A program made the translations under genes and the position numbers. Shown here piece by piece: positions 14,194 to 31,799 of a stretch of 64,000 bases of DNA. The notes under the pieces are model-generated. The model saw only the letters and a list, made by a program, of their open reading frames with translations. It did no database searches and had not been told where the DNA came from. This DNA is from Hoeflea prorocentri. GTDB lineage: Bacteria; Pseudomonadota; Alphaproteobacteria; Rhizobiales; Rhizobiaceae. The stretch spans positions 496,001 through 560,000 of the forward strand of contig NZ_JAPJZI010000001.1 in NCBI RefSeq assembly GCF_027944115.1, given 5' to 3'. Positions within the stretch are counted from its first letter, which is position 1. Each line of letters starts with the position of its first letter.

Positions 14194-14213
14194 AACAGAG
14201 ACGGAAGAGAACA

Positions 14214-17213: not shown

Positions 17214-17226
17214 GGAGGTTCATGTG

Positions 17227-18168: not shown

Positions 18169-18240
18169 CCAAGCCAGCTCCGGATATTTTTTAACCTGAA
18201 ACCGCGTCACCGAACGTGAGAAATGTAAGCGGAAACGGAA

Positions 18241-19023
18241 ATGATGAGCGCGGTGCTGGAAACGGCAAATGAGGTACAAAGGGAAGCGGCGGTCACGGCT
18301 ATGAAGCATTTCCGCTCCGGTCTGGACGTTGATCTCAAGTCCGACGAAAGCCCTGTCACCGCCGCCGATCTGGCCATTGAATTCGATGCCCGTGCCCGCA
18401 TCGAAGCACGCTTTCCCGGTCACGCAATTCTGGGTGAAGAATATGGGGCAGGGGACCTGACCAAGGATCATATTTGGGTCATCGACCCGATAGATGGCAC
18501 CCGATCCTTCATCTCTGGTCATCCGGCATTCGGGTTTCTCCTCGCCTATCTGGAAAGTGGCCACAACCAGCTCTCCATGGTGTCCATGCCGGCGTTGAAT
18601 GAGATTTTTGTTGGACAGGCCGGGCAGGGGGCAACGCTCAACGGCACTCCCATTTCCTGTTCGAAGAAGACGGACCTGTCGAAGGCGATTCTTTACATCA
18701 ATGAGGGTGAGAAGCTCTTTGCCGATCATCCGGAGATTCATAAACGGCTTGTGAAATCGGGACACACAAGACGGTTAGCCTATGATTGTTATCCCCATGC
18801 GATGATGGCTGCAGGCTTTGTCGATTGTGTCGTCGACTACGATCTGAAGCCCTTTGACTTTCTTCCGCTTGCCGGTGTGATCGAAGCCGCTGGTGGCACC
18901 ATCACCGACTGGCAAGGCAATACTCTTGACTTCAATTCGGACGGCAGGGTCGTCTCGGCCGCGACGCCGGAGCTGCACCGCGATTTGCTTGATATTCTGT
19001 CTTCGAACGATCCGAACGCGTGA
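18241..19023 (+). CDS. Inositol-monophosphatase family phosphatase
   Basis: 260 residues with the full IMPase metal set: Glu66 in LGEEYGAG, Asp82 and Asp85 in WVIDPIDGTRSF, and a late Asp in LKPFDFLPLAGVIEAAGG. A normal-length member of the branch that includes histidinol-phosphatase-like enzymes. It dephosphorylates a small sugar- or polyol-type phosphate with Mg2+. Last gene of the cluster. A phosphatase after two kinases is unusual unless the phosphate is needed only for intermediate steps, such as trapping or activation for cleavage. Confidence 0.88.
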   Translation: MMSAVLETANEVQREAAVTAMKHFRSGLDVDLKSDESPVTAADLAIEFDARARIEARFPGHAILGEEYGAGDLTKDHIWVIDPIDGTRSFISGHPAFGFLLAYLESGHNQLSMVSMPALNEIFVGQAGQGATLNGTPISCSKKTDLSKAILYINEGEKLFADHPEIHKRLVKSGHTRRLAYDCYPHAMMAAGFVDCVVDYDLKPFDFLPLAGVIEAAGGTITDWQGNTLDFNSDGRVVSAATPELHRDLLDILSSNDPNA

Positions 19024-19323
19024 GAGCGGCGACCGTGTATGTCCGAAACGATGATCACCTCCCGAAAACCAAGGATACCCACCGTTTGAGTTCGCCATGG
19101 CTGAACACGGCCGTGGATTTCTCGATGCCGTCGATAGCCAGGCGGAACTGATTTGTGTCTCTGGGACATGTTCTTGTGACCTGCGTCCGAGGGTATTGTG
19201 TGGACAAGGTGGGGTTAGAGAGCCGCAAAGTCGTCGATACAAACGTCTGCACTTTCGCAAAGGCACTATTCAACCGGGGGGATATAAAATATCTCTGTGC
19301 GAGGTATCAGGAGCGGAGTGTCA
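19024..19323. promoter_or_regulatory. LacI-gene upstream region
   Basis: 300 bases with no convincing gene. It holds a degenerate copy of the LacI operator (19236-19253) and an AT-rich GATATAAAATAT block near 19280 that could be the -10 region of the regulator's own promoter. Confidence 0.5.
19236..19253 (+). promoter_or_regulatory. Degenerate LacI operator (autoregulation)
   Basis: GATACAAACGTCTGCACT matches 14 of 18 positions of the perfect palindrome found at 20447 and 29494. It lies 70-90 bases upstream of the LacI start, so the regulator probably controls itself. Confidence 0.5.
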
Positions 19324-20334
19324 ATGGCGAAGGTTGGGATCAAGCACCTTGCGGAGGAGTTGAACGTGGATGTGTCCACGGTGTCCCGCGCTTTGCGCAA
19401 TGATCCAAGAGTTAAGCCGGAGACCACCAGGATGGTCCAAAATCTGGCGAAAAAGCTGGGATATCGTCCGAACTCGGCCGCAAGGGCTTTGCGGGGAGGC
19501 AAAACCGGCAGGGTGGCCGTTTTGCTCTCTCCGCCGCAACAGCGTTTTGCCAGCCCGGTTTTTCTGGAACTTCTTGCGACCCTGGACGGTTACCTCAGAC
19601 AGGAGAAAATGTCGCTTGCCGTCTTTGCCGCGCGGGATTGGGATGAAGAGGTGGAGATTGTCCGCTCGGTTGTGGACGATCGCATGGCCGATGCGATCAT
19701 TCTCGGCCGCACGCGGGTCAACGACGAACGGATCAGATATCTGCTGGACCAAAATGTACCGTTTGTCAGCTTCGGACGCTCGTCCTGGCCGGATGAGCAC
19801 TCCTGGGTTGAGATCGACTATCTTGAGGCCGGGCAGATCGCGGTTTCCGCCCTGTCGGAAAACCGGCCGGACTCGCTGACCATTGTCGCTGCGTCGGAGG
19901 GGCTTCGTTTTGCGGACAACTTCGTCAGGGGCGCCCTTGATGAAGCCAGAGGCCGCGATCTGGATGACATAGCCGTGCGCCGGGTGGAGATGTCGGAGAG
20001 CGAGGGAGAAAGACTCGCCAAAGAGGTTCTGACTGAAGCGAGCCGATCTGCATTTGCCTGTATTCAGGATTCACTTGCTTTTGGATTTTATCGTGGCGCT
20101 GCCCAACAAGAGCGCAAGATCGGCCGTGAGATTGCGCTTTTCGGCGGCCAGAATTTTCCGGGTGCGGAACATACCGCCCCACCGCTATCGACCTTCTCGA
20201 CACAGGACAAAAAGGTTGCCGATCTATTGAGCCGGGTCATGATCCGGCGATTGGGCTCGGAAGGTGCGTCTGCCCCACAACACCACACGGTTTCTCCGGA
20301 GCCCTTGTTACGGTCATCCCATTTCCTGGAATAG
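19324..20334 (+). CDS. LacI family transcriptional regulator
   Basis: 336 residues from ATG 19324 (AGGAG upstream). The N-terminal HTH is textbook: VGIKHLAEELNVDVSTVSRALRNDP with hinge GYRPNSAARALRGGKTGRVAVLL. The periplasmic-binding-protein-like sensor domain follows. The HTH-hinge class recognises palindromes with a central CpG and half-sites like those at 20447 and 29494 (AAACG/CGTTT centre), so it is the obvious controller of the sugar importer downstream and of the GH31 gene 10 kb away. The inducer should be a sugar. Confidence 0.92.
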   Translation: MAKVGIKHLAEELNVDVSTVSRALRNDPRVKPETTRMVQNLAKKLGYRPNSAARALRGGKTGRVAVLLSPPQQRFASPVFLELLATLDGYLRQEKMSLAVFAARDWDEEVEIVRSVVDDRMADAIILGRTRVNDERIRYLLDQNVPFVSFGRSSWPDEHSWVEIDYLEAGQIAVSALSENRPDSLTIVAASEGLRFADNFVRGALDEARGRDLDDIAVRRVEMSESEGERLAKEVLTEASRSAFACIQDSLAFGFYRGAAQQERKIGREIALFGGQNFPGAEHTAPPLSTFSTQDKKVADLLSRVMIRRLGSEGASAPQHHTVSPEPLLRSSHFLE

Positions 20335-20446
20335 TATCGGTCCGCAACCGACAACCGCGCACTTGCCCGGGTTTGAGTGACCGGAACTCCAGTTTTCCCT
20401 AGGGTGCGATATGAAATTCCAATCGTTTGCATAGCTAAAAAACAAA

Positions 20447-20464
20447 AATACAAACGTTTGTATT
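20447..20464 (+). promoter_or_regulatory. LacI operator, perfect 18-bp palindrome, importer promoter
   Basis: AATACAAACGTTTGTATT is its own reverse complement. Its last bases overlap the -35 box (TTGACG at 20463), a classic repressor position. The identical 18 bases recur at 29494-29511 in the same relation to a promoter. Confidence 0.85.
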
Positions 20465-20491
20465 GACGATTTAGAGTAAAGCCCATAGTGT
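20463..20491 (+). promoter_or_regulatory. Sigma70-type promoter of the sugar importer
   Basis: TTGACG (20463-20468), 17-base spacer, TAGTGT (20486-20491). The predicted start is near 20498, leaving a leader of about 195 bases before the binding-protein gene. The rest of the 20335-20693 gap shows no gene; a 60-codon frame ending 2 bases before the binding-protein ATG is not convincing. Confidence 0.65.
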
Positions 20492-20693
20492 CCGGTTATT
20501 GGGAGGAGGTTGGCTGAAAATCTGTTTGTGGCGACATGCGCGCCCTTCCGGCACTTCTCGTTTTTATCCGGAAGTGAACACCTGAATTCAAACTGCGTCA
20601 TTGATACCCGGATATGTTTCAGCGAAAGGCTGGCCCGGCTGTCTGACATAAAACGAAACGCCATAACCATCCTAGCCTTGAGGGAGGAATGAT

Positions 20694-21902
20694 ATGAAAA
20701 GACTTTTAGTGGCGGCAGTCGCGGCGACGGCAATTGCATCCGCATCGGTCGCGGCCTTTGCCGAAACCAAACTCGATGTCTGGCACGTGATCAATATCGA
20801 CAAGGACATGGTCCATGACGGGATCAAGTCCTTCAACGAAATCGATCAAAATGTACAGGCGGAAGAACGCATCGTTCCGTTTGCCCAGCTTGAACCTGAA
20901 CTCTTGAAGGCAATCGCCACCGGCGATGTGCCGGACGCGGTGATGCTGGCAAGCAACTCGGTTCCCGCATTTGTGGTTGGAAACGCGCTGATGGATCTGA
21001 CCGAAATGGTTGCCGGCTCAGACAAGGTGAATGGCGAGGACTATCACCCCGGTCCCTGGAACTCCGCGCAGTGGGACGGCAAGGTTTACGCGGTGCCGCG
21101 CGCGGCGAATACACTCGCCCTCTACTACAATAAGGACCTGCTCGACGAGAAAGGGATTTCCGTTGAATCACTTGGTACATGGGATGGTCTGATTTCGGCC
21201 GCAGAAGCGCTTACCGTTCCCGGCGAACGGTTCGGCCTTGCATTCTCAGCGATTGCGACGGAAGAGGGAACGTTCCAGTTTCTGCCTTGGCTGTGGCAAG
21301 CCGGCGCGGATATCGATACGCTCGATACACCCGAAGCCGCGTCTGCCCTGCAGGTCTGGGTCGATCTTGTGAAGAACGGTCATTCGTCAAAAGACGTTCT
21401 GACGATGCGCCAGTTTGAAGGCACATCCACGTTTATGGCTGAAAACGCGGCCCTGGTCATCTCCGGCCCTTGGGAGCTGCCGCGGATCGAGAAGGACGCC
21501 AAGTTCAACTGGGGGGTGCGCACACTACCAGTCAAGGACGGCGTGAATATCGAAGCCTCTGCGCTTGGCGACTATAACTGGGTTATTCCAACCGGGGCCA
21601 AGGATCCGGGCGCGTCGTTCAAGTTCATCGAATACATGACCTCCGAGGACGTTGTAAAAAACGCCTGGGACAGCGGACGCCTTTCCGCCCGCGCCGACAT
21701 CGACGTTCTGGTCAATCAATGGCCTGACGCCTTTGCAACCTTCAACGAGCAGATGAAGTCCGCGCGTCAGCGCGGCCCGGATCCGAAATATGGTGAGAAA
21801 TCCCGCGTGATCCAGAAGGCCATTCAGCAGGCGATGACCGAGGAACTGACCGTTGAAGCGGCCCTGACCGAGGCTGCAGCGGCCATTGCAAAGATCAAGT
21901 AA
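20694..21902 (+). CDS. Sugar ABC importer substrate-binding protein, family 1
   Basis: 402 residues; Sec signal peptide about 1-23 (ending AAFAE). The mature protein has the family-1 pattern: KLDVWHVINIDKDMVHDGIKSFNE, LLKAIATGDVPDAVML, GKVYAVPRAANTLALYYNKDLL and EDVVKNAW near the C-terminus. It should bind a mono- or oligosaccharide. Followed by a 14-bp perfect stem-loop and then two permeases and an ATPase, a complete CUT1-type importer. Transcribed from the LacI-controlled promoter at 20463. Confidence 0.92.
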   Translation: MKRLLVAAVAATAIASASVAAFAETKLDVWHVINIDKDMVHDGIKSFNEIDQNVQAEERIVPFAQLEPELLKAIATGDVPDAVMLASNSVPAFVVGNALMDLTEMVAGSDKVNGEDYHPGPWNSAQWDGKVYAVPRAANTLALYYNKDLLDEKGISVESLGTWDGLISAAEALTVPGERFGLAFSAIATEEGTFQFLPWLWQAGADIDTLDTPEAASALQVWVDLVKNGHSSKDVLTMRQFEGTSTFMAENAALVISGPWELPRIEKDAKFNWGVRTLPVKDGVNIEASALGDYNWVIPTGAKDPGASFKFIEYMTSEDVVKNAWDSGRLSARADIDVLVNQWPDAFATFNEQMKSARQRGPDPKYGEKSRVIQKAIQQAMTEELTVEAALTEAAAAIAKIK

Positions 21903-21916
21903 CGCCTAAGACCAGT

Positions 21917-21954
21917 GCCGATCACTCCGACGCGTGGATTTCGGAGTGATCGGC
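21917..21954 (+). terminator. Intercistronic stem-loop after binding-protein gene
   Basis: GCCGATCACTCCGA and TCGGAGTGATCGGC form a perfect 14-bp stem with a 10-base loop, 14 bases after the stop. No T run; a likely mRNA stabiliser that keeps binding-protein levels above permease levels. Confidence 0.8.
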
Positions 21955-22042
21955 GCCTCCCGATACGGTAAAAAGCATGGCAGCTATGTTGCTGCTCGGT
22001 TGAATCCATCCGCACACATGCATCCAAGACCGCAATGAGGAA

Positions 22043-22897
22043 ATGGGAAAAATGGTAAGAGTTTTTCTGGCCTTGCCCATGGCCTTTCTGCTGATCCTCA
22101 TCGGATTTCCGGTTCTCTACAACGTCCTGATGAGTTTTCAGGACGTAACGTTGATGACGCTTCCACAATTCATGCGTCCCTGGATTGGAATCAGCAACTA
22201 CACCACCTTGTTGGGAGAAAAAGTCACCTATGAGGTGTTGGCGAATACGTTTGTCTTTGTCGGCGGCAACGTGGTGTTCCAGATCGCCATAGGCCTCAGC
22301 CTGGCGCTGTTTTTTGAACTGAGCTTTCCGGGTGCAAAGTTCATGCGTGGCCTGTTTCTGGTCGCATGGATGCTGCCGCCGCTGGTGATCGGCTCGGTTT
22401 GGAAGTGGCTCTTTGCCACGGAATCCGGCGCCATCAATGCGATATTGGGCTCCAATATGAACTGGCTTTCGGACCCGTCAACGGCGCTGTGGGCCGTAAC
22501 GACAGCGAACATATGGTTTGGAACGCCGTTTTCGATGATCCTGCTGTCCGCCGCGGTGTCCAATGTTCCAAAGGAACTGCTTGAGGCGGCCTCGCTGGAT
22601 GGTGCCGGCCCGATCCGCCGCTTCATCTACATCACATTGCCTGCAATCTCGGCCAGCCTTCTGGCTGTCGTGAGCCTCACAATCATCTATTCGATGCGCG
22701 CCTTCGATGTGATCTGGGCCATGACAAAGGGCGGGCCTGTGGATTCATCGACCATTCTGCCGCTCTTTTCCTATCGGCTGTCCTTTGACGAGTTCAAGTT
22801 CGGCGGCGGTGCCGCGGCGGCAAACTTCGCCTTTATCATCGTGTTCATTGTGGCGCTCATCTATGTGCGCTCCATCAAACATGAGAAAATACTATGA
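22043..22897 (+). CDS. Sugar ABC importer permease, MalF/UgpA type
   Basis: 284 residues, six transmembrane segments. MalF-type features: LPMAFLLILIGFPVLYNVLMSF at the N-terminus and the EAA loop VPKELLEAASLDGAGPIRRFIYITLP that docks on the ATPase. Starts at ATG 22043 behind ATGAGGA. Ends with the 4-base ATGA overlap into the second permease, so the two inner-membrane subunits are made in equal amounts. Confidence 0.9.
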   Translation: MGKMVRVFLALPMAFLLILIGFPVLYNVLMSFQDVTLMTLPQFMRPWIGISNYTTLLGEKVTYEVLANTFVFVGGNVVFQIAIGLSLALFFELSFPGAKFMRGLFLVAWMLPPLVIGSVWKWLFATESGAINAILGSNMNWLSDPSTALWAVTTANIWFGTPFSMILLSAAVSNVPKELLEAASLDGAGPIRRFIYITLPAISASLLAVVSLTIIYSMRAFDVIWAMTKGGPVDSSTILPLFSYRLSFDEFKFGGGAAAANFAFIIVFIVALIYVRSIKHEKIL

Positions 22898-23733
22898 GAA
22901 CGTTTGGCACCTTTACCGGGTACCGGAGCCTGATTCTGTTTGCGATCGGTATCACGCTGGTTTCGATTTACCTGTTCCCGGTTTACTGGATGGTGATCTC
23001 AGCACTCAAAACCTCCACGGAAATCTTTGTTCGCCCGCCGACTTTTGTGCCGGAAGCTCCGACGCTTGAAAACTTCCTCTGGATTGCCGAACAGCCGAAG
23101 CTGCTGACATTCCTGGCAAACTCATTCATCATTGCGACCTTCACCACCATCATCACCTTGATACTCGGATCCATCGGTGCTTACGCCATGGCCCGCTGGC
23201 GTTCATGGGTGGTCGATGCGGCTCTGGTGCTTGTGCTGGTCATGCAGGCATTTCCGGAAGCTCTTTTGGCGACACCACTGTTCCTTTTGTTCAAGCAGGT
23301 AGACCTGTTGAACACCTATACCGGCGTCATTTTGGCGACATCCACCAAAACGCTCACACTCGCGCTTGTCGTGCTTCGCCCGATGTTTGCACAGGTGCCA
23401 AAGGAGCTGGAGGAAGCGGCGTTCGTTGACGGTTGCAATTCCTTCCAGTCCTTTATCCAGATCGTCTTGCCCATCATGCTGCCCGGACTGCTGGTGATCG
23501 GAGCGCTGTGTTTCATCCTCGCCTACGGACAATTCGTCTACCCGCTCTCGCTGACGACACGCGCTGATTTGCATCCGGCAACCGTCGGTCTTTATGGATT
23601 TGTCGGTGCTGAATATGCGGATTGGCACCGAGTCATGGCTTATGCAACGATCGTCGTCTCTCCGGTTGTCGTGCTGTTTCTGCTGCTGCAACGGCGCATC
23701 GTTGGCGGACTGACCGCAGGAGCCCTCAAATGA
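22894..23733 (+). CDS. Sugar ABC importer permease, MalG/UgpE type
   Basis: 279 residues. The MalG-type N-terminal helix is followed by YWMVISALKTSTEIFVRPPTFVP, the typical LxxFLP-like region, and EAA loop VPKELEEAAFVDGCNSFQSFIQIVLP. Six helices. Start overlaps the stop of the partner permease. The ATPase gene begins 49 bases later. Confidence 0.9.
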   Translation: MRTFGTFTGYRSLILFAIGITLVSIYLFPVYWMVISALKTSTEIFVRPPTFVPEAPTLENFLWIAEQPKLLTFLANSFIIATFTTIITLILGSIGAYAMARWRSWVVDAALVLVLVMQAFPEALLATPLFLLFKQVDLLNTYTGVILATSTKTLTLALVVLRPMFAQVPKELEEAAFVDGCNSFQSFIQIVLPIMLPGLLVIGALCFILAYGQFVYPLSLTTRADLHPATVGLYGFVGAEYADWHRVMAYATIVVSPVVVLFLLLQRRIVGGLTAGALK

Positions 23734-23782
23734 CCGTTCGTAGAAAATCAAAAGGCTGTCGGAAAAGATCGGAGCTCTGCCA

Positions 23783-24829
23783 ATGGGCCGTCTAAGCATA
23801 AAAAATGCCCAGAAGGCATATGGGACCGTCAAGGTCCTGCACGGGATCGACCTTGATATCAATGATGGTGAGTTTGTTGTCCTGGTCGGTCCTTCCGGTT
23901 GCGGTAAATCGACCCTTTTGCGGATGATCGCGGGACTGGAATCGATCAGTGGCGGTGCGATCGAAATTGCTGATCGGGAAGTGAACAATGTCGCGCCAAA
24001 GAACCGTGACATTGCGATGGTTTTTCAGAACTATGCGCTTTACCCGCATATGACTGTTGCCAGGAATATGGGCTTCTCGCTCAAGATGCGCGGCCTGTCG
24101 CGCAAGGAGATCGACGCAAGGATCAAGACGGCTGCCGGCATACTCGGTTTGGACCAGTTGCTTGATCGATATCCCAAGCAGCTTTCAGGTGGTCAGCGGC
24201 AACGGGTGGCGATGGGCCGCGCGATTGTTCGCGATCCCGCTGTTTTTCTTTTCGATGAGCCGCTTTCAAACCTCGATGCCAAGATGCGCATCAGCATGCG
24301 CGGCGAGATCAAGGAGCTTCACGAGCGCCTAAGGACCACCATCGTTTATGTTACCCACGATCAGATTGAAGCCATGACCATGGCCGACCGAATAGTGATC
24401 ATGAAAGATGGCGCCATTCAGCAAGTTGGCACGCCAGACGATATCTACAGCGATCCTGCCAACCTGTTCGTCGCCGATTTCATCGGCAGCCCGGCAATGA
24501 ACCTGATGCAAGGCCGGATTGAAGACGGCGCCTTCAAGTCGGGATCGTCGCTTGTCCTTCAAGTCCAGCAGCCACGCTCCGATGTCGGGCAGATCGTTCT
24601 TGGTGTTCGGCCGGAACAGATACAACTTGGTCAGGAAGGTGTCGCGGCAACGGTAAAACGGGTGGAGCCAACGGGATCGGAGACCGTTGTGACCCTCGAT
24701 GCAGGCGGCGTGACCGTGACGGCCCTGTCCCGATCAGAGAAACATTACCAGGTGGGAGATGCCGAAACGTTCGGTGTGTCTCCCGCGGCATACCGTTTCT
24801 TCGACGCGAGCTCCGGACAAAAAGTCTGA
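23783..24829 (+). CDS. Sugar ABC importer ATPase, UgpC/MalK/MsmK type
   Basis: 348 residues: Walker [11 protein letters not shown]-loop [14 protein letters not shown], signature [14 protein letters not shown], Walker [16 protein letters not shown], switch His in [15 protein letters not shown], then the OB-fold regulatory (TOBE) domain with [10 protein letters not shown]. All catalytic residues are intact, in contrast to the fused ATPase at 12364. It completes a CUT1 importer controlled by LacI. Confidence 0.92.
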
Positions 24830-24884
24830 CGCCTGTCCGGATAAGGTCCGGCGGATCCGGCTGTGTTTGTCGTGGCGGCCTGTC

Positions 24885-25751
24885 CTATTGACGCTCTCCG
24901 GCGTTGGGAGAAATGCCTTCAGTCGAATGCCAGGCCTCGCGTCTCGCCTGCGTTGGCGTCATCCCGGTTCGATCTTTGAAGAGCCGGGAGAAATGGTAGG
25001 GATTGGCGAACCCGACCCGCTCCGCGACTTCGGACACGTTCAGTCCCGTGTTTCTCAGAAGGCCATGACCTCTTGTCACCCGCTCATTCCAGAGCCATTG
25101 AGCGGGTGTGGGTTTGCCATGTGTTCTGCATAGCCTGACCAGGTAACTCTCCGTCACCTTGGCGGCCCCGGCCATGTCAGTCAGGGATATTTGCCGTGCA
25201 TAATTCTGTTCGATAAACCGCGCCAGCCTGGCCAGCGGGCGAGGCCTGTTGTAAATCTCCTGCCCGGTCTTGTCTTCCGACCACTGATCGGCAAAGGCGG
25301 TGAGATAAGCCTTCACAAGAAGCATCTGCACATCCGGCCAGGATCGATCGGATATCAACTGCGGGGTTTCCTCCATATGGATGCCCGGTCCATTCCTGAC
25401 AGCTTCGAACAGCCCTCGCATCAATGGTGTTTCGCTTGCAAATTTCGGCAGTATCCCACGCAGATCAAGCATTTTCGATGTTGCGTGATCGCCTTCCGGT
25501 GAAATCGCGATCCACCGGTGACTGGAGGCCTGATGCTTGTCGAACACATAGGTTTCGCGAAATCCCGGCCATTGACAGCAGACCTGGCCGGGATGAAGCG
25601 TGATTTTTGTGCCGTCCGTATCGATTGAAACGGACCCGTGATCCAACATCACCAGTTGTAAGCCGGTCTGTATCCTGGGCCCCAAAGAGCGGCCCGGAGC
25701 GTAATTGATCTGACCGGTCTCAATTCGCTTGATCTCTCCAATGTCAATCAT
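24885..25751 (-). CDS. AraC family transcriptional regulator
   Basis: 288 residues. An N-terminal cupin-like sensor region (IQTGLQLVMLDHGSVSIDTDG, HPGQVCCQWPG) precedes the C-terminal double HTH: ISLTDMAGAAKVTESYLVRLCRTHGKPTPAQWL, then LNVSEVAERVGFANPYHFSRLFKDRTGMTPTQ. Divergent from the desaturase-like oxygenase gene, so its likely target is the oxygenase promoter and the 62-base stem-loop between them. Convergent with the importer ATPase. Confidence 0.9.
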   Translation of the reverse strand: MIDIGEIKRIETGQINYAPGRSLGPRIQTGLQLVMLDHGSVSIDTDGTKITLHPGQVCCQWPGFRETYVFDKHQASSHRWIAISPEGDHATSKMLDLRGILPKFASETPLMRGLFEAVRNGPGIHMEETPQLISDRSWPDVQMLLVKAYLTAFADQWSEDKTGQEIYNRPRPLARLARFIEQNYARQISLTDMAGAAKVTESYLVRLCRTHGKPTPAQWLWNERVTRGHGLLRNTGLNVSEVAERVGFANPYHFSRLFKDRTGMTPTQARREAWHSTEGISPNAGERQ

Positions 25752-25830
25752 GGATATTTTTCGGCTCCTCTCAGATATGGGAAATGCATAGCTGATCAGA
25801 CATTATTTTTGCAAGTGACGACCTCCCAGT

Positions 25831-25892
25831 GCCCGGCTCTCGAGGATTGGATCAAGGCTTGCAGATCTCAATCCGAGGCACGAGAGCCGGGC
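25831..25892 (+). promoter_or_regulatory. Long structured leader/operator upstream of the oxygenase gene
   Basis: GCCCGGCTCTCG (25831-25842) and CGAGAGCCGGGC (25881-25892) form a perfect 12-bp outer stem; inside it GGATTG (25844-25849) pairs with CAATCC (25869-25874). It ends 37 bases before the oxygenase start. It could be an RNA leader, a transcription attenuator without a T run, or a long protein-binding palindrome for the divergent AraC regulator. Confidence 0.65.
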
Positions 25893-25929
25893 CACATGGA
25901 GGCCGGCTGGCTTGAGGAGGCTGCGGACA

Positions 25930-27009
25930 GTGAAGACAATGAGGGACTACTCGCTTGTGGGTGCAAGCACGAAGTCGGCCGAAGAAACCGGTTTGGTGTC
26001 GGCCGAGTGGTATATGTCGGATGTACCCCGCAAGACGATGAAAGACCTCATGCGCCGGACTGACGGCCCCGCTATCCGTGACACGATCATCTGGTTCGGT
26101 TTGCTGCTGGCGACAGGCGTTGGAGCCTATCTGCTATGGCCGAGCTGGTGGTGTCTGCCTTTGTTTATCACTTACGGTGTCCTCTACGGCTCGGTGTCGG
26201 ATTCCCGTTGGCACGAGTGTTCTCATCGGACCGCATTCAAGACAAGGTGGATGAATGACGTCATCTATGAAATCGCCTGTTTCATGATCATCCGGAACCC
26301 GACCGTTTGGAGATGGAGCCATACGCGCCACCACACGGATACCTATATTGTCGGCCAGGATCCGGAAATTGTCGTTATGCGGCCTCCGGATCTGTTTCGA
26401 GTGATCCTGAGCTTCTTCGGCCTTGAGGGCGCACTTGGCAACGTCAAGGACATGTTCCGGTATAGCGTCGGCATCATCAATGACGAAGAGAAGAGCTTTA
26501 TTCCAGAAACAGAGCGCTACAAGGTTGTGCGCACAGCCAGAATTTGGGTTCTGATCTATGCCTCCGTCATTGGTCTGGCAATCTGGTCACTGAGCATCCT
26601 CCCGCTGATGTTTGTCGGGCTTCCGCGCTTTTATGGCGGCTGGCATGTGCCGCTGACCGGACTGCTCCAGCATGGCGGGCTTGCAGACAATGTTCTCGAT
26701 CATCGGCTGAACTCCCGGACCGTCTACATGAACCCGATCAGCCGATGGATCTATTGGAATATGAACTACCACATCGAGCATCACATGTTTCCAATGGTCC
26801 CGTACCATCGCCTTCCCGAACTCCATGAGCTTTTAAAGAACGACATGCCCGCGCCTGATACATCGATGTTGGCAGCGTACCGAAAAGTCATCCCGGTGTG
26901 GCTGCGCCAATTGAAATATGAGGACCACTTCCTGAAGCGGGAACTGCCGCCGACTGCAAAGCCCTACAAGGAATTCAAGGAAGAGCTGCCAGCGGCTGCA
27001 AATGCATGA
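25930..27009 (+). CDS. Desaturase-type di-iron oxygenase, MocD-like
   Basis: 359 residues from GTG 25930, nine bases after GAGGAGG at 25914. Membrane fatty-acid-desaturase/hydroxylase fold with all three histidine boxes: HECSH, HTRHH and HIEHH, plus an extra His in LLQHGGLADN, and about four transmembrane helices. The next two genes supply a Rieske ferredoxin and a ferredoxin reductase. The trio matches rhizopine mocDEF of Sinorhizobium (established: needed to use the O-methylated 3-O-methyl-scyllo-inosamine). I infer hydroxylation of an O-methyl group with release of formaldehyde; the real substrate is not determined. Confidence 0.78.
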   Translation: MKTMRDYSLVGASTKSAEETGLVSAEWYMSDVPRKTMKDLMRRTDGPAIRDTIIWFGLLLATGVGAYLLWPSWWCLPLFITYGVLYGSVSDSRWHECSHRTAFKTRWMNDVIYEIACFMIIRNPTVWRWSHTRHHTDTYIVGQDPEIVVMRPPDLFRVILSFFGLEGALGNVKDMFRYSVGIINDEEKSFIPETERYKVVRTARIWVLIYASVIGLAIWSLSILPLMFVGLPRFYGGWHVPLTGLLQHGGLADNVLDHRLNSRTVYMNPISRWIYWNMNYHIEHHMFPMVPYHRLPELHELLKNDMPAPDTSMLAAYRKVIPVWLRQLKYEDHFLKRELPPTAKPYKEFKEELPAAANA

Positions 27010-27019
27010 GGGAGGAACA

Positions 27020-27337
27020 ATGGGAAACTGGGTAGAGGCGTGTGCTGCGGATGATATCGATGGGGAGGACTTGATCCGTTTTGATTATGACGGTCATTCC
27101 TATGCCATTTACCGCAGCCCGGAGGATGAGTATTTCGCCACCGACGGCTTGTGTACCCACGAACAGGTGCATCTGGAAGATGGTCTCGTGATGGGCGATA
27201 CCATCGAATGCCCCAAGCACAACGGTGTCTTCAACTATAAGACCGGCGAAGCCAAGGGCGCACCCGTCTGCGTGAATTTGAAGACTTATGCGGTAAAGGT
27301 CGAAGGCGGCTCGGTATTTATCGATGTCGGCCGCTGA
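27020..27337 (+). CDS. Rieske [2Fe-2S] ferredoxin, MocE-like
   Basis: 105 residues from ATG 27020 behind GGGAGGA. The Rieske ligands are complete: CTH in LCTHEQVHLEDG and CPKH in IECPKHNGVFNYKTGEAKG. A single-domain soluble electron carrier between the FAD reductase and the di-iron oxygenase. Begins 10 bases after the oxygenase stop and overlaps the reductase gene by 14 bases, so the three are produced together. Confidence 0.9.
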   Translation: MGNWVEACAADDIDGEDLIRFDYDGHSYAIYRSPEDEYFATDGLCTHEQVHLEDGLVMGDTIECPKHNGVFNYKTGEAKGAPVCVNLKTYAVKVEGGSVFIDVGR

Positions 27338-28526
27338 CGAGGCAATCGCCATTGTCGGCGCCGGGGAATGCGGGGTCGCGGCGGCCTTCGCGCTGCGCGA
27401 TCTCGGACACCACGCCGGCATTTCCCTGATTGGAGATGAGCCGCACATACCGTACGAGCGGCCGCCCTTGTCAAAGACGGTACCGGCATCACTGAAGCCC
27501 ATTCGTGACAGCAGCGATTATGATGCTGCGGACATTACTCTGCTGAGAGGTCATGCGGTTGCCGGAATTGACCCGGAAGCCCAATGCCTCCGTTTCTTCG
27601 ACGGGGGCACGCTTCAATTTGAAAAGCTGCTTCTCGCAACAGGTGCAAGGCCTCGCGTGTTTCCCGGCCTTGAACAGGCTCGGACCTTTCGGACGCTCGA
27701 TGATGCGGACGCGATCCTTTCCGCCCTGTCCGCTCAAACGCGGCTTGTTGTCATCGGCGGCGGGTTTATCGGTCTGGAACTGGCCGCCTGTGCCCGCTTG
27801 CTTGGAGCGAGTGTCACCGTTCTTGAAGCAGGCGCGCGGACCATGGCGCGTGCCGTGCCGCCATCCATCTCCGACTATGTGGCCACTCGACATAAACAGG
27901 AAGGTGTCGACATTCGTTACGGGGCACATGTGAGCGATATTTGCGGCGGTGAAGTTCGCTGCCTGGACGGTCGGACCTTTGCCCATGATGTTGTCGTTGC
28001 CGGCACGGGATCGTGGCCAAATGTGGAACTGGCTGCGGACGCAGGCCTTGCCATCGACAATGGTATTGTCGTCGACCAGAAGTTTCTGACATCAAGCCCG
28101 GGAATCTATGCCGCCGGCGACTGCTGCTCTTTTCCTTACAATGGGCGGCATATCAGGCTCGAGAGCTGGCGTGCGGCGCGGGAGCAGGGACGTAGCGTGG
28201 CGGCAAGCATGCTGGGCCATGACATCGCCCACGAAGACATCCCATGGCTATGGTCGGATCAATATGACCTTGGCCTCCAGGTCGTCGGCCTTCCGGCGGG
28301 CACGGAGATTTCCGCCCGTCGTCCGGTCGCGGATGCCCATGGTTTCATCGATATTCAATGTGACGGACGAGGCCGGATCGTATTCGCGGCCGGTGTGGGG
28401 AAGGGCAACAAGATCGCAAAGGACATGAGGCTGTTGGAGATGATGATTCGAAAGCAAGCCAGGCCCACTCGCGCCGCGCTGGCAGATCCGTCAACCAATC
28501 TTAAGGCGCTTTTGAAAGCGGCATAG
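27324..28526 (+). CDS. FAD-dependent ferredoxin reductase, MocF-like
   Basis: 400 residues. FAD site IVGAGECGVAAAFAL at the N-terminus, YERPPLSKTV as in rubredoxin/ferredoxin reductases, NAD(P)H site VVIGGGFIGLELAAC, and second FAD block GIYAAGDCCSFPYNG; C-terminal reductase domain after about residue 310. It passes electrons from NAD(P)H to the Rieske ferredoxin. Overlaps the ferredoxin gene; the PanB-like gene follows 10 bases later. Confidence 0.9.
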   Translation: MSAADEAIAIVGAGECGVAAAFALRDLGHHAGISLIGDEPHIPYERPPLSKTVPASLKPIRDSSDYDAADITLLRGHAVAGIDPEAQCLRFFDGGTLQFEKLLLATGARPRVFPGLEQARTFRTLDDADAILSALSAQTRLVVIGGGFIGLELAACARLLGASVTVLEAGARTMARAVPPSISDYVATRHKQEGVDIRYGAHVSDICGGEVRCLDGRTFAHDVVVAGTGSWPNVELAADAGLAIDNGIVVDQKFLTSSPGIYAAGDCCSFPYNGRHIRLESWRAAREQGRSVAASMLGHDIAHEDIPWLWSDQYDLGLQVVGLPAGTEISARRPVADAHGFIDIQCDGRGRIVFAAGVGKGNKIAKDMRLLEMMIRKQARPTRAALADPSTNLKALLKAA

Positions 28527-28536
28527 GGAGACAAAC

Positions 28537-29328
28537 ATGGGCAGGCCAACCGTCGCGGACATTCGCGCACTCAAGGGCAAACGCAAACTGAGCATGCTCT
28601 ATGTTCAGACAACCGATGAAGCGGCGGCGGCGAGCAAGGCCGGCATTGATATGCTGTGCGTTCTGTTGACCAACTGGACGATGGAAATGCGCGAGGCGGC
28701 AGGCGACTGCTTCGTGCAGGTCGGTTTTCCCTACTACAAAATCGTCACGATCGAAGAGCATCAACGCGCGGCCAGGGACGCGCTGGTCATCGGTGGCGAC
28801 AGTATTTACTGTGCGTCCTCCTATGCCACACTGAAGACCCTTGCAGATGACGGCATCCCCGTTGTTGGGCATGCGGGATTGATCCCCCAGAAACGAACCT
28901 GGACGGGTGGCTGGAAGGCCGTCGGCAAAACGGCTGAAAGCGCGAGGCAGGTCTTCGATCATGTCAAGAAGATTGAAGAGATCGGCTGTTTCGGTGTGGA
29001 GCTTGAAGTGGTGCCAGATCGTGTTGCGGAAGAAATCGCAAAGCGGACCAGTCTGGTCATTCTCGGTATGGGTGCCGGACCCCACTGCGATGCCCAATAT
29101 CTGTTTGCCGATGATGTGCTGGGATGTACCAGGGGCCGTGTCCCCAGACACGCTAAAACCTATCGCGATTTTGATCGCGAATACAAACGTTTGCAGGTAG
29201 AGCGCATCGCCGCGTTTCAGGAGTTCAAGCAGGACGTCGACGGCGCGGCCTATCCCGCAAGCGAACACATCGTGCCGATCAGCGACGATGAGCTGAAGAG
29301 CTTCAAATCCATGTTGGATGACGCCTGA
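28537..29328 (+). CDS. Divergent PanB-like (ketopantoate hydroxymethyltransferase family) protein
   Basis: 263 residues. The C-terminal half aligns well with PanB: VVGHAGLIPQ, GGWKAVGKTAE, VELEVVPDRVAEEI, GMGAGPHCDAQYL. The N-terminal half does not. The VGDS Asp, the ADLPF Asp and the VK-EGG Lys/Glu that bind Mg2+ and ketopantoate in PanB appear as LCVLLTN, VQVGFPY and IYCASS. His (GHAGL) and the late Glu (ELEVVP) remain. So it is not a working PanB by sequence. Placed directly after an oxygenase set predicted to release formaldehyde, it might handle a one-carbon or aldol step; that is inference. Confidence 0.75.
   Translation: MGRPTVADIRALKGKRKLSMLYVQTTDEAAAASKAGIDMLCVLLTNWTMEMREAAGDCFVQVGFPYYKIVTIEEHQRAARDALVIGGDSIYCASSYATLKTLADDGIPVVGHAGLIPQKRTWTGGWKAVGKTAESARQVFDHVKKIEEIGCFGVELEVVPDRVAEEIAKRTSLVILGMGAGPHCDAQYLFADDVLGCTRGRVPRHAKTYRDFDREYKRLQVERIAAFQEFKQDVDGAAYPASEHIVPISDDELKSFKSMLDDA
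29180..29197 (+). promoter_or_regulatory. Auxiliary LacI operator inside the PanB-like gene
   Basis: AATACAAACGTTTGCAGG matches 15 of 18 positions of the perfect operator, with the first 14 identical. It lies 314 bases upstream of the operator at 29494, which is close to 30 helical turns, so the two could support repression looping. It also encodes ordinary residues (EYKRLQV), so chance cannot be excluded. Confidence 0.45.
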
Positions 29329-29493
29329 CGCAGTATTCATTTGAACACGGACGTGCTGAATGGGCTCGAGCCTCCAGTCACAAACTCTACCCGTTTCGGT
29401 GTATATTGGAAGTTGATCCTCTGAAAGGATCATGAACTCATCATTTCGTCCATCACCCGCTTTCGGTTTCAATGGGTTACCGCGTAAAGAGAA

Positions 29494-29511
29494 AATACAA
29501 ACGTTTGTATT
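29494..29511 (+). promoter_or_regulatory. LacI operator, perfect 18-bp palindrome, GH31 promoter
   Basis: AATACAAACGTTTGTATT, identical to the operator at 20447-20464 and likewise overlapping the first bases of a -35 box (TTGACC at 29510). Places the GH31 gene under the LacI regulator at 19324. Confidence 0.85.
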
Positions 29512-29538
29512 GACCGGTTTTTGAAGAGTGGCTATCGT
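29510..29538 (+). promoter_or_regulatory. Sigma70-type promoter of the GH31 gene
   Basis: TTGACC (29510-29515), 17-base spacer, TATCGT (29533-29538); predicted start near 29545. A GGGAGGA lies right after the start point, as it also does in the importer promoter. The remainder of the 29329-29696 gap shows no separate gene. Confidence 0.65.
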
Positions 29539-29696
29539 TCACAGATGGGAGGAAACCGGTGACACGCTTTCGTCGCCTGCGCATCGCGTGTGTCGACCGA
29601 CAACCCTCAATAGTTACCAATACCGTGCTGTGCCGCAATGAGCTGCAGGGTCGGAGACCTGTGCGCGTGGCTCGCGATCTGTTGCCTGGAGGGCCA

Positions 29697-31799
29697 ATGA
29701 CAAGGAAAATTGCTTCACCGTTTACTGAAGATAACGGCGCTTTGGTCGCCCGCTTTCTGGGGGAGACGCTCCACATCATGCCGTGGGGTGATGATGGGCT
29801 TCGCGTACGCGCATCTCCCGGACCCGTGATCAGAGAAGCACCGGTGAGTGCCCTGGTGCGTGGAGAGGGGGGGAGCGGGGAGAGCCCGCCAAAAATTGAT
29901 ATTGATTGCGAAGCCGCTTCCATCACGAACGGACGAGTGACTGCTCGTCTCAAGGTGGTGACGCGATATGGCGCCGAGATCAAGCGTGAAGTTGTGGTCA
30001 GCTATGTGCGCTCGGATACGGGCGAGGAACTGCTTGCTGAAACGCGAAGCCATTTTGCAGGCCCGAAGACGCGCAACTTTAAAGGCCAGATCGGCGGGGC
30101 CTTCAAACTGGAAGCGACTTTCAAGTCCTATGACGATGAGTTTCTGCACGGTCTCGGCCAGCCGCAACATGGCAAGGCCAACCTGAAAGGTGTGTCAACG
30201 ACACTTATGCAGCAGAATGCACATGCCGTTATTCCCTTCGTCATATCGTCGCGCGGATACGGTTTCCTGTGGAACAACCCGGCCGTGGGGCGTTGCGAGT
30301 TTGCTTCCAACATCACTCGGTGGACCGCAGAGGCAACACGGTGTCTGGATTACTGGATCACCGCGGGCGACAACGACCGCGAAGTTCTCAGCGCCTATCA
30401 CAAGGTTACCGGGCATTCGCCCGTTTTGCCGCAATGGGCCACCGGTTTCTGGCAATGCAAACTCAGATATCGCACCCAGGAAGAGCTCCTGAACGTAGCC
30501 CATGAATACAAGCGCCGCGGATTGCCGCTCTCTTGCATCGTGATCGACTTTTTCCACTGGACCCGGCAAGGCGACTGGAAGTTTGATCCTGCGGAATGGC
30601 CGGACCCGAAGGGTATGGTCAAGGAACTGCGCTCAATAGGTGTTGAGCTCATGGTGTCGGTCTGGCCCACAGTCTCAGTGACATCGGAGAACTACAAGGA
30701 GTTGAATGAGCGGGGCATGTTGATCACCACGGATCGGGGTGTCGATGCTGTGGTCGGGCTAATCGACAAAGATCCGTTCGGACCAATGTATCTGACCTAT
30801 TACGATGCCTTCAATCGCGAAGCCCGCGATTTCCATTGGTCCACCGTCAAGCGCAACTATGTAGACAATGGCATCGATCATTTCTGGATCGATGCGTGTG
30901 AACCGGAGATGCGCCCGGCCAATCCTGAGAACGTGCGCACGGCGCTCGGCAATGGCGCGGAGGTCATGTGCGCCTATCCGCTGTTGCACGAGAAACGCTT
31001 TCGCGAGGGGCTGAACAAGGAAGGCCGCGATGGCGTGTTGCTGTGTCGTTCTGCCTGGGCCGGCTCTCATGCCCACGGGGTTATTCTCTGGTCGGGAGAC
31101 ATCTGGTCGAACTGGGAGTGGTTCCGTGCGCAAATCCCCGCCGGTTTGCACTCCGGAATGTCAGGGCTCGGATGGTGGACGACGGATATCGGCGGATTTT
31201 ACGACGGGCAGGGCAATCGCCCCGAATTCCGTGAACTGCTGGTGCGGTGGTTCGAGTTCGGTGTCTTTTCGCCCATTTGCCGTCTGCACGGCTTTCGCAT
31301 TCCGGACGATATTCCAGCACCGGGGCCGGGCGAAGAGGTTACGTATGGTGAAGACACGGTTCGCCTGTTTATCGAATCCGGAGGTTCGAACGAAGTTTGG
31401 TCCTTCGGCGGAGAGGTGGAAGCCGTTTTGACGAAGCTGCTGCAGGTCAGAGAAGATCTGCGACCTTATCTGCAGGATTGTTTTGTAGAGTTCTCCAAAA
31501 GCGGCATGCCGGTGATGGCTCCCATTTACTTGCATTTTGAAGAGGAGATCCGGTCACGTGAAGATGCAGGGCGATACATGCTTGGGCCGGACATACTGGT
31601 CGCGCCTGTGCTCGATGCAGGAACGGAGACGATGAAGGTTGCCCTGCCTAAAGGCGAGGATTGGGTACATGCCTGGACAGGAGCCGAATATCGGGGTGGC
31701 GAAGTCGCTGATGTCGCCTGCCCTTGGGGTGAGTGCCCCGTCTTTGTACGCGCGACCGCCTCCTCAAAGGTGAAAGATGCATTCCCTGCGCTTGGCTGA
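29697..31799 (+). CDS. Glycoside hydrolase family 31 (alpha-xylosidase/alpha-glucosidase)
   Basis: 700 residues from ATG 29697 (GGAGGG upstream). In-frame GTG at 29559 also has a strong ribosome site and would add 46 residues of no recognisable fold. GH31 landmarks: nucleophile Asp in DHFWIDACEPEMRP and acid/base Asp in VILWSGDIWSNWEWF, followed by SGLGWWTTDIGGFY and the C-terminal beta domain (MLGPDILVAPVLDAG). No signal peptide, so it should act in the cytosol on imported alpha-linked oligosaccharide. The WIDACEPE form resembles the alpha-xylosidase branch. Controlled by LacI through the operator at 29494. Confidence 0.88.
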   Translation: MTRKIASPFTEDNGALVARFLGETLHIMPWGDDGLRVRASPGPVIREAPVSALVRGEGGSGESPPKIDIDCEAASITNGRVTARLKVVTRYGAEIKREVVVSYVRSDTGEELLAETRSHFAGPKTRNFKGQIGGAFKLEATFKSYDDEFLHGLGQPQHGKANLKGVSTTLMQQNAHAVIPFVISSRGYGFLWNNPAVGRCEFASNITRWTAEATRCLDYWITAGDNDREVLSAYHKVTGHSPVLPQWATGFWQCKLRYRTQEELLNVAHEYKRRGLPLSCIVIDFFHWTRQGDWKFDPAEWPDPKGMVKELRSIGVELMVSVWPTVSVTSENYKELNERGMLITTDRGVDAVVGLIDKDPFGPMYLTYYDAFNREARDFHWSTVKRNYVDNGIDHFWIDACEPEMRPANPENVRTALGNGAEVMCAYPLLHEKRFREGLNKEGRDGVLLCRSAWAGSHAHGVILWSGDIWSNWEWFRAQIPAGLHSGMSGLGWWTTDIGGFYDGQGNRPEFRELLVRWFEFGVFSPICRLHGFRIPDDIPAPGPGEEVTYGEDTVRLFIESGGSNEVWSFGGEVEAVLTKLLQVREDLRPYLQDCFVEFSKSGMPVMAPIYLHFEEEIRSREDAGRYMLGPDILVAPVLDAGTETMKVALPKGEDWVHAWTGAEYRGGEVADVACPWGECPVFVRATASSKVKDAFPALG

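What the first reader, a model, noticed from the sequence alone, without database searches (positions are those of the whole stretch)
19236..31799. Candidate O-methyl-sugar catabolic regulon: importer, GH31, MocDEF-like oxygenase set and PanB-like protein bracketed by identical LacI operators
Seen: a CUT1 sugar importer and a GH31 glycosidase share an identical operator-promoter arrangement, and the genes between them encode a three-His-box di-iron oxygenase, a Rieske ferredoxin and its reductase. Known: MocDEF is needed for use of the O-methylated rhizopine 3-O-methyl-scyllo-inosamine, and oxidative O-demethylation releases formaldehyde. Inference: the region imports an alpha-linked oligosaccharide carrying an O-methyl sugar, trims it and demethylates it. 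No classical rhizopine genes (mocA, mocB, mocC, mocR) are present, so the substrate is probably different.
Basis: partly seen in the sequence, partly recalled or inferred. Interest (0 to 1): 0.8.

Follow-up and report, generated by a model that had tools for sequence, protein, structure and literature searches.

The report
Sugar-ether demethylation operon with PanB-like protein
A bacterium carries genes that probably import an alpha-linked methylated sugar, cut it and strip off its methyl group, and they include a look-alike of a vitamin B5 enzyme that probably hands the resulting one-carbon unit to folate.

Summary
A LacI gene, a CUT1 importer, an AraC gene, MocD/MocE/MocF homologues, a PanB-like gene and a GH31 gene lie where stated, and the palindrome ATACAAACGTTTGTAT occurs at exactly two places in the genome (up to 1 mismatch), before the importer and before GH31. 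The oxygenase operon lacks that operator; it starts divergently from araC. The operator recurs in 14 of 15 related GH31 loci; six of these carry xylA, so GH31 is best read as alpha-xylosidase-like. GH31 is joined to MocD and PanB-like genes in three separate branches of its tree. The main new result concerns the PanB-like protein. All six loci opened beside rhizopine-type MocR read mocR-mocD-mocE-mocF-PanB-like-purU (mocD perhaps broken in one). The family lacks the metal and keto-acid residues of ketopantoate synthase (64 of 64), no panC was found in the genome, and a published R. etli relative fails to complement panB. I propose that MocDEF oxidises an O-methyl ether and the PanB-like protein passes the one-carbon unit to tetrahydrofolate, for FolD and PurU. 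The PanB-like function and the exact substrate are inference.

The parts
19237..19252 (.). degenerate LacI operator (3 mismatches) upstream of lacI; possible autoregulation
19324..20334 (+). LacI-family regulator, 55-67% identical to the LacI next to GH31 in 13 related loci
20448..20463 (.). perfect 16-bp palindromic operator ATACAAACGTTTGTAT before the importer (23 bp identical to the GH31 site)
20694..21902 (+). CUT1 sugar-binding protein; only 36-42% identical to the binding proteins of the related GH31 loci
22043..22897 (+). CUT1 permease (MalF-like)
   Evidence: no family scan
22894..23733 (+). CUT1 permease (MalG-like)
   Evidence: no family scan
23783..24829 (+). CUT1 ATPase (UgpC/MsmK type)
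   Evidence: NF008653 over cut-off
24885..25751 (-). AraC-family regulator, divergent from the oxygenase operon
25831..25892 (.). imperfect inverted repeat (22-nt arms, 82%) in the araC-mocD gap; candidate AraC site, untested
25930..27009 (+). MocD-like three-His-box di-iron oxygenase
27020..27337 (+). MocE-family Rieske [2Fe-2S] ferredoxin
27324..28526 (+). MocF-like FAD ferredoxin reductase (start overlaps end of mocE)
28537..29328 (+). PanB-like protein lacking the canonical metal and keto-acid residues; proposed tetrahydrofolate-dependent acceptor of the one-carbon unit
29181..29196 (.). operator-like site (2 mismatches) inside the 3' end of the PanB-like CDS, 314 bp before the GH31 operator; it codes for a conserved protein motif, so it may be coincidence
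29495..29510 (.). perfect 16-bp operator before GH31
29697..31799 (+). GH31 glycosidase, alpha-xylosidase-like (PDB best match MeXyl31); an upstream GTG at 29559 is also possible

Best explanation
The region is a catabolic locus for an alpha-linked, O-methylated glycoside, most likely of xylose type. LacI releases two units on the same signal: a CUT1 importer and a GH31 that cuts the alpha link. The MocD di-iron oxygenase, fed electrons by MocF and MocE, hydroxylates an O-methyl group to an O-CH2OH hemiacetal, which gives the free sugar (or cyclitol) and a formaldehyde-level one-carbon unit. The PanB-like protein is not ketopantoate synthase; it catalyses or assists transfer of that unit to tetrahydrofolate, giving methylene-tetrahydrofolate, which FolD and PurU oxidise to formate. 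SHOWN: gene content, operators, recurrent linkage of GH31 with MocD and PanB-like genes, frequent linkage of PanB-like with MocE and a di-iron oxygenase, linkage with purU (and twice with an apparently whole folD), loss of the ketopantoate site. INFERRED: hydroxylation of a methyl ether (from the known role of mocDEF in rhizopine use), the tetrahydrofolate reaction of the PanB-like protein, and the xylose-type substrate. In this genome the C1 genes would have to be general copies, which I did not look for outside the window.
For: Rhizopine loci: six of six loci opened, beside a MocR over the rhizopine_MocR cut-off (L230) or 86-100% identical to it, read mocR-mocD-mocE-mocF-PanB-like-purU (in RCAM1115 mocD matches in two pieces and is not annotated). 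Mesorhizobium huakuii: mocD-mocE-mocF-PanB-like-purU-folD; folD also follows in Phyllobacterium. Family sample of 199 genomes: 43 of the 58 best MocD rows have a PanB-like gene within 6 kb, and 43 of the 50 best PanB-like rows have MocD. Around 46 PanB-like genes read, within 6 kb and at 40% identity or more: MocE in 41, MocD or a sterol-desaturase-family oxygenase in 40, PurU in 8; around 20 canonical panB genes: 0 of 20 for each. Oxygenases of another family (PF04116) take MocD's place beside PanB-like. Active site: 64 of 64 PanB-like proteins lack the Mg ligands and keto-acid Lys kept by 20 of 20 canonical PanB; His136 and Glu181 (E. coli numbering and roles recalled) are kept in all. Own genome: no panC, no other panB. 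R. etli RHE_PE00443 does not complement panB (PMC3082293, passages); the panB-annotated gene on the part of that plasmid that I opened follows mocDEF and is 52% identical to ours. Precedent: purU-mabO-folD operon of a demethylase that forms methylene-tetrahydrofolate (PMC3891541, passages). GH31: best PDB match MeXyl31 alpha-xylosidase, E 1.2e-175; xylA beside 6 related loci; xylA in own genome. GH31 with MocD and PanB-like in three separate tree branches.
Against: 15 of 58 MocD rows have no PanB-like row within 6 kb (contig ends not checked; one of them, G139, has a 47-residue PanB-like match). Three annotated plasmid loci with MocD show no PanB-like gene: R. leguminosarum Vaf-108, Burkholderia cenocepacia, Jiella pelagia. 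So PanB-like is not strictly needed. Conversely L162, L203, L221 and L223 have PanB-like without MocD within 6 kb. purU is near in only 8 of 46 family-sample loci and folD in none of them; neither is in the window. The oxygenase operon has an AraC gene and no LacI operator, and many relatives sit with inositol-type genes, so its substrate might be a methyl cyclitol unrelated to GH31. The class A GH31 loci lack MocD within the DNA held (up to about 10 kb). No structure supports a folate site: the AlphaFold model is weak (pLDDT 61.9, six sequences). I found no biochemistry for any of these proteins.
Confidence: 0.55

Rival explanations
1. Two pathways side by side: LacI, importer and GH31 form a plain alpha-xyloside locus, and an AraC-flanked mocDEF/PanB-like cassette for a methyl cyclitol or other methyl ether has landed between them by chance.
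For: Class A GH31 loci have no MocD in the DNA held; the cassette has its own AraC gene and no LacI operator; many other cassettes sit with iolG, IolE-like TIM barrels and CUT2 importers.
Against: GH31 of this clade is linked to MocD and PanB-like genes in three separate branches of its tree, and in genome G099 a cluster otherwise like the class B loci has a GH31 of the other lineage. The window importer is not the one of the plain loci: its binding protein is 36-42% identical while LacI and GH31 are 55-78%, which suggests a changed substrate.
Confidence: 0.27
2. The PanB-like protein is a C1-using aldolase: it adds formaldehyde (free or from methylene-tetrahydrofolate) to a sugar- or inosose-derived ketone and so assimilates the methyl carbon.
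For: Canonical PanB does such a hydroxymethyl addition (PMC4814558 and PMC3082293, passages); His136 and Glu181 are kept.
Against: All four residues that hold the metal and the keto acid are gone (64 of 64). purU and folD after the gene point to oxidation to formate, not assimilation.
Confidence: 0.15
3. MocD acts as a lipid desaturase or hydroxylase and the neighbours are unrelated.
For: It belongs to Pfam FA_desaturase.
Against: It clusters with MocD genes, many beside cyclitol/sugar importers, and away from the genome's two other FA_desaturase proteins; matches to the DesA, DesB and CrtR models are 26-36 bits against cut-offs of 475-500; 66% identity to the MocD of a rhizopine locus.
Confidence: 0.05
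4. The PanB-like gene makes ketopantoate for pantothenate, as its relatives are annotated.
For: PF02548 match; no other panB in the genome.
Against: Ligands lost, panC not found, 98.3 and 125.2 bits against NCBIfam panB cut-offs of 207.55 and 272, and the R. etli relative fails to complement (PMC3082293, passages).
Confidence: 0.02

Closest known systems
Rhizopine (3-O-methyl-scyllo-inosamine) catabolism, moc genes of S. meliloti and R. leguminosarum
   Same: mocDEF homologues in the same order, MocD 66% identical to a MocR-linked one; PanB-like gene directly after, as in the six rhizopine-type loci opened
   Different: AraC instead of MocR beside mocD; no mocA/B/C-like gene in the window; CUT1 importer and GH31 glycosidase added; no purU or folD in the window
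Cytochrome P450 oxidative demethylation of 6-O-methyl-D-galactose in marine Flavobacteriia (PMC10033563, passages)
   Same: Oxygenase plus ferredoxin plus reductase next to glycoside hydrolases; removes a sugar methyl ether
   Different: Di-iron MocD instead of P450; PanB-like protein; different glycosidase family and phylum
purU-mabO-folD operon of nicotine catabolism in Arthrobacter (PMC3891541, passages)
   Same: Demethylation coupled to methylene-tetrahydrofolate, then FolD and PurU
   Different: N-methyl substrate and an oxidase; no PanB-like protein named in the passages
Ketopantoate hydroxymethyltransferase PanB
   Same: Same Pfam family; conserved His136 and Glu181
   Different: All Mg and keto-acid residues lost; new near-invariants W122, E155, H205, R223 (window numbering)
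MeXyl31-type GH31 alpha-xylosidase (PDB 5zn6)
   Same: Near full-length match, shared FWQCKLRYRTQ and DFFHW segments
   Different: Different stretch after the nucleophile (DACEPEMRPANPENVRTALGNG); activity untested

Membership tests
MocDEF-type O-demethylating oxygenase system | MocD with three His boxes | tested here: met
   HECSH, HTRHH, HIEHH; 59 or 60 of 60
MocDEF-type O-demethylating oxygenase system | MocE-family Rieske ferredoxin and ferredoxin reductase adjacent | tested here: met
   TIGR02377 over cut-off; reductase by Pyr_redox_2 and Reductase_C
MocDEF-type O-demethylating oxygenase system | Close to mocD of a rhizopine locus | tested here: met
   66% identity to MocD beside rhizopine_MocR
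MocDEF-type O-demethylating oxygenase system | Removes a methyl ether from a cyclitol or sugar | not testable with these tools
   needs enzyme assay or mutant growth
Rhizopine catabolism locus (mocCABRDEF) | mocA, mocB, mocC, mocR with mocDEF | tested here: not met
   no match in the window for the MocR, Gfo/Idh, IolG, TIM-barrel or CUT2 SBP probes; genome has a rhizopine-type MocR elsewhere
Ketopantoate hydroxymethyltransferase (PanB) | Mg ligands and keto-acid residues (E. coli D45, D84, K112, E114; numbering recalled) | tested here: not met
   absent in 64 of 64 PanB-like, present in 20 of 20 canonical
Ketopantoate hydroxymethyltransferase (PanB) | NCBIfam panB cut-off | tested here: not met
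   98.3 and 125.2 bits against 207.55 and 272
GH31 glycoside hydrolase | GH31 barrel with catalytic nucleophile and acid/base Asp (roles recalled) | tested here: met
   PF01055; D399 and D468 in 36 of 36
GH31 alpha-xylosidase | Activity on alpha-xylosides | tested here: inconclusive
   nearest PDB entry MeXyl31; xylA beside 6 related loci; no assay
LacI/GH31/CUT1 alpha-xyloside regulon (class A here) | Shared operator ATACAAACGTTTGTAT and related LacI | tested here: met
   operator in 14 of 15 loci; LacI 55-67% in the 13 that hold it
LacI/GH31/CUT1 alpha-xyloside regulon (class A here) | Oxygenase operon under the same operator | tested here: not met
   no site with up to 3 mismatches in the araC-mocD gap

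The most novel reading that the evidence does not exclude
The PanB-like family is a new kind of one-carbon enzyme, without the canonical PanB metal site, that takes the hydroxymethyl group made by di-iron O-demethylases (MocD or sterol-desaturase type) onto tetrahydrofolate, so that free formaldehyde is not released; the rhizopine operon is really mocDEF-PanB-like-purU(-folD), and the window shows the module captured for an alpha-linked methylated sugar.
Probability: 0.42. Interest if true: 0.82.

Novelty: new variant of a known kind. Interest (0 to 1): 0.62.

Why it matters
Methyl ethers block sugar catabolism, and for the MocDEF route the fate of the methyl carbon was not described in any paper passage I saw. 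A partner protein annotated as a vitamin B5 enzyme in the annotated plasmid records opened would be the missing one-carbon acceptor; that would correct an annotation, explain purU and folD in rhizopine operons and predict which methylated sugars and cyclitols such bacteria can use. It is directly testable by one gene deletion and one folate assay.

Tried and rejected
Ordinary pantothenate role of the PanB-like gene: rejected. Plain lipid desaturase: rejected. LacI control of the oxygenase operon: no operator found. AlphaFold model of the PanB-like protein: too weak to place a folate site, so no fold search was run. PDB sequence search with MocD gave only one match at E 0.02 to an unrelated kinase. 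The MocD tree has only two lipid-type outgroups plus two distant homologues, and no experimentally characterised MocD. A search of plasmids with GH31 gave 39 records, none at 60% identity or more, and was not used. The literature search for O-methyl-xylose catabolism gave nothing usable. The Arthrobacter review says 'formaldehyde' as the PurU product; PurU makes formate (recalled). The 'mocD' of a mannopine plasmid serves another step (PMC6341043, passages) and was not taken as evidence. PMC12478193 (passages) was looked at and not used. PanB relatives at 31-38% identity (L213-L219) lie without MocD or MocE and were not explained.


Full report
WHAT IS THERE. The window lies in an unnamed 5.04-Mb genome of two contigs (G000, window at C1:496001-560000); its family is probably Rhizobiaceae (inferred, not named by a call). 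Order: lacI > [operator] > SBP-permease-permease-ATPase >, < araC, mocD-mocE-mocF-PanB-like > [operator] > GH31. The 16-bp palindrome is perfect at 20448 and 29495 and occurs nowhere else in the genome with up to one mismatch. Degenerate copies lie at 19237 and 29181. The scan shows no terminator-like site on the + strand between the PanB-like gene and GH31, so read-through is possible.

REGULON TEST. Some are short. Of these 21, 11 hold a LacI at 58-67%, 11 a CUT1 binding protein, 10 an EthD protein and an SDR, and 5 MocD with PanB-like. I call the LacI/CUT1 kind class A and tested 15 loci of it for the operator, adding L051 (genome G095) and L106; 13 of the 15 hold LacI (55-67%). The operator is present in 14 of 15 (22 sites with up to 3 mismatches; permuted palindromes give a mean of 0.23, maximum 2); the exception, L077, starts at GH31. 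It is absent from 7 other loci. Six of the 15 carry xylA (L070, L074, L076, L079, L104, L106; xylA and xylB of L074 are over the NCBIfam cut-offs), ten a SMP-30/gluconolactonase and four a GMC oxidoreductase. The nearest PDB entry is the alpha-xylosidase MeXyl31. This makes an alpha-xyloside the likely class A substrate; the own genome has xylA elsewhere.

OXYGENASE AND GH31 TOGETHER MORE THAN ONCE. In six loci (L050 = G099, L080, L082, L083, L084, L088) GH31 lies within about 10 kb of MocD, PanB-like, a GH13 alpha-glycosidase, another LacI (30-33%) and CUT2-type importer genes; the SBP in G099 resembles the rhizopine SBP model but is far below its cut-off, 80.5 against 420 bits: class B. In the GH31 tree the MocD-linked enzymes fall in three places: the window (sister of L070, whose contig starts 1.4 kb upstream of GH31, so linkage there is open), G099 (sister of class A locus L071), and the class B clade (branch support was computed but not shown). 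G099 therefore has class B neighbours but a class A type GH31. In the 199-genome family sample GH31 (E up to 1e-60) occurs in 3 genomes: the window's, G099 and G095. The window importer differs from the class A importers (SBP 36-42% while LacI and GH31 are 55-78%), and a close SBP relative (E up to 1e-90) was found in one other of 397 genomes of the order (G399, 50%), in a cluster with ThuA, UPF0261 and PEP-hydrolase genes and without the operator.

THE PANB-LIKE PROTEIN. In 11 annotated plasmid loci that hold it (four of them found through MocD, so not a random sample), MocE is within 6 kb in 10, MocD in 9, a sterol-desaturase-family oxygenase in 1, an IolE-like TIM barrel in 7 and iolG in 5; L162 has none of the oxygenase genes. 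In the 199-genome family sample, 43 of the 58 best MocD rows (54-100% identity; 7 rows at 31-38% dropped) have one of the 50 best PanB-like rows (44-100%; lower rows, mostly canonical panB, dropped) within 6 kb, and 43 of these 50 have MocD (chance about 0.2% per locus). Of 46 PanB-like loci read, 40 have MocD or a sterol-desaturase-family oxygenase within 6 kb, 41 MocE and 8 PurU; of 20 canonical panB loci none has any of these (thresholds 40% identity). When the oxygenase is of the PF04116 family, MocE is also present in seven loci (L044, L059, L060, L209, L220, L249, L251) and absent in two (L210, L250). In 398 genomes of the phylum PanB-like (E up to 1e-38) is seen in 19, each of the same class as the window genome; of ten further such loci opened, eight hold MocD, MocE or a sterol-desaturase homologue and two (L242, L248) none. 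Against: Vaf-108, B. cenocepacia and Jiella plasmid loci have MocD but no PanB-like gene.

RHIZOPINE LOCI. S. meliloti KH35c pSymA (L230) has a MocR at 764 bits against the 650-bit rhizopine_MocR cut-off, then mocD, mocE, mocF, PanB-like and purU. Five more MocR loci (Phyllobacterium zundukense Tri-48, S. meliloti RCAM1115, R. indicum, R. lentis, R. leguminosarum A1) have the same order, with 9 to 41 bp between the annotated PanB-like and purU genes; in RCAM1115 mocD matches in two pieces and is not annotated, so it may be broken. I opened 6 of the 14 plasmid records with 80% or more MocR identity. folD follows purU as one match of 288 of 299 residues in Phyllobacterium and as an annotated gene in Mesorhizobium huakuii, and as partial or broken matches in the three Rhizobium records; none was matched in the two S. 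meliloti loci. Published accounts that I saw in passages describe the unit as mocDEF (PMC10107442) or mocCABRDEF (PMC6668481).

WHY IT IS NOT PANTOTHENATE SYNTHASE. Aligned with 20 canonical PanB, 64 distinct PanB-like proteins lack the GDS segment with the first Mg ligand, and have G/A/S for the second Asp, Y/I for the Lys and A/S/G/P/T for the Glu, while His136 and Glu181 stay (E. coli numbering and roles recalled). In the genome no panC and no other panB were found. In R. etli the second 'MOHMT' on p42e keeps 5 of 12 active-site residues, has no metal domain by CD-search and does not complement a panB mutant (PMC3082293, passages); the stretch of p42e opened shows a panB-annotated gene after mocD-mocE-mocF, 52% identical to ours. 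That the two are the same gene is inferred from plasmid, annotation and length (270 and 271 aa).

HOW IT MAY WORK. Shown: linkage and site loss. Inferred: MocDEF hydroxylates O-CH3 to O-CH2OH; the PanB-like protein brings tetrahydrofolate to this hemiacetal or to the formaldehyde it gives; FolD and PurU finish to formate. Canonical PanB uses methylene-tetrahydrofolate (PMC4814558, passages), and a purU-mabO-folD operon serves a known demethylase (PMC3891541, passages). In P. syringae mocDEF sits next to a second xylose isomerase gene (PMC5132102, passages), an independent hint of a xylose-type substrate.

PRINT CHECK. Searches of the open PMC library listed no paper that joins PanB or PurU to mocDEF or rhizopine (0 papers with mocDEF and purU; 0; 12 of 253 listed, none of those with 'rhizopine'; 10 papers, none with both PanB and mocD or mocE; searches are listings of 30 of 83, 15 of 63 and 15 of 336). 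Subscription papers, including Bahar et al. 1998, and the supplementary synteny figure of PMC10107442 were not seen, so the PanB-like gene may already be drawn there.

VERDICT. The locus is a real assembly with a real operator pair; O-methyl glycoside use is the best reading, with chance neighbourhood the main rival. The most valuable result is the PanB-like partner of MocDEF.

Noticed in passing
window 12364-19023: Upstream genes on the + strand: a double ABC ATPase and an amidohydrolase (read by eye, not scanned), a DeoR regulator and an APH-type kinase, a second similar kinase (not scanned), and a HisN-like phosphatase below its cut-off; a separate catabolic operon of unknown substrate.
   Followed up: partly
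L052 (G000:C1:2858700-2864500): Second MocD-MocE-MocF-PanB-like cassette in the same genome with a LacI-like regulator (by eye), CUT2-type importer genes and two Gfo/Idh/MocA dehydrogenases.
   Followed up: partly
L238 (G000:C1:3459301-3460734): Rhizopine-type MocR regulator over the curated cut-off, near iolE-like and Gfo/Idh-like matches but without mocDEF in the 20 kb fetched.
   Followed up: partly
G000 whole genome: No panC and no canonical panB found although the assembly is rated 99.82% complete: possible pantothenate auxotroph.
   Followed up: partly
L044, L059, L060, L209, L210, L220, L249-L251: Sterol-desaturase-family (PF04116 in L044) oxygenases in place of MocD near PanB-like genes, in seven of nine with MocE.
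   Followed up: partly
L213-L219: A further PanB-related group (31-38% identity) that also lacks the metal residues but has no MocD or MocE; five of seven lie near CUT2-type ATPases.
   Followed up: no
L082, L083: PhyH-type dioxygenase gene directly before GH31 in class B clusters; in L083 also a Rieske ring-hydroxylating oxygenase downstream.
   Followed up: no
window 32188-35405: Apparent type I secretion pair (HlyD-like adaptor and ABC ATPase, by eye only) on the - strand next to the locus.
   Followed up: no
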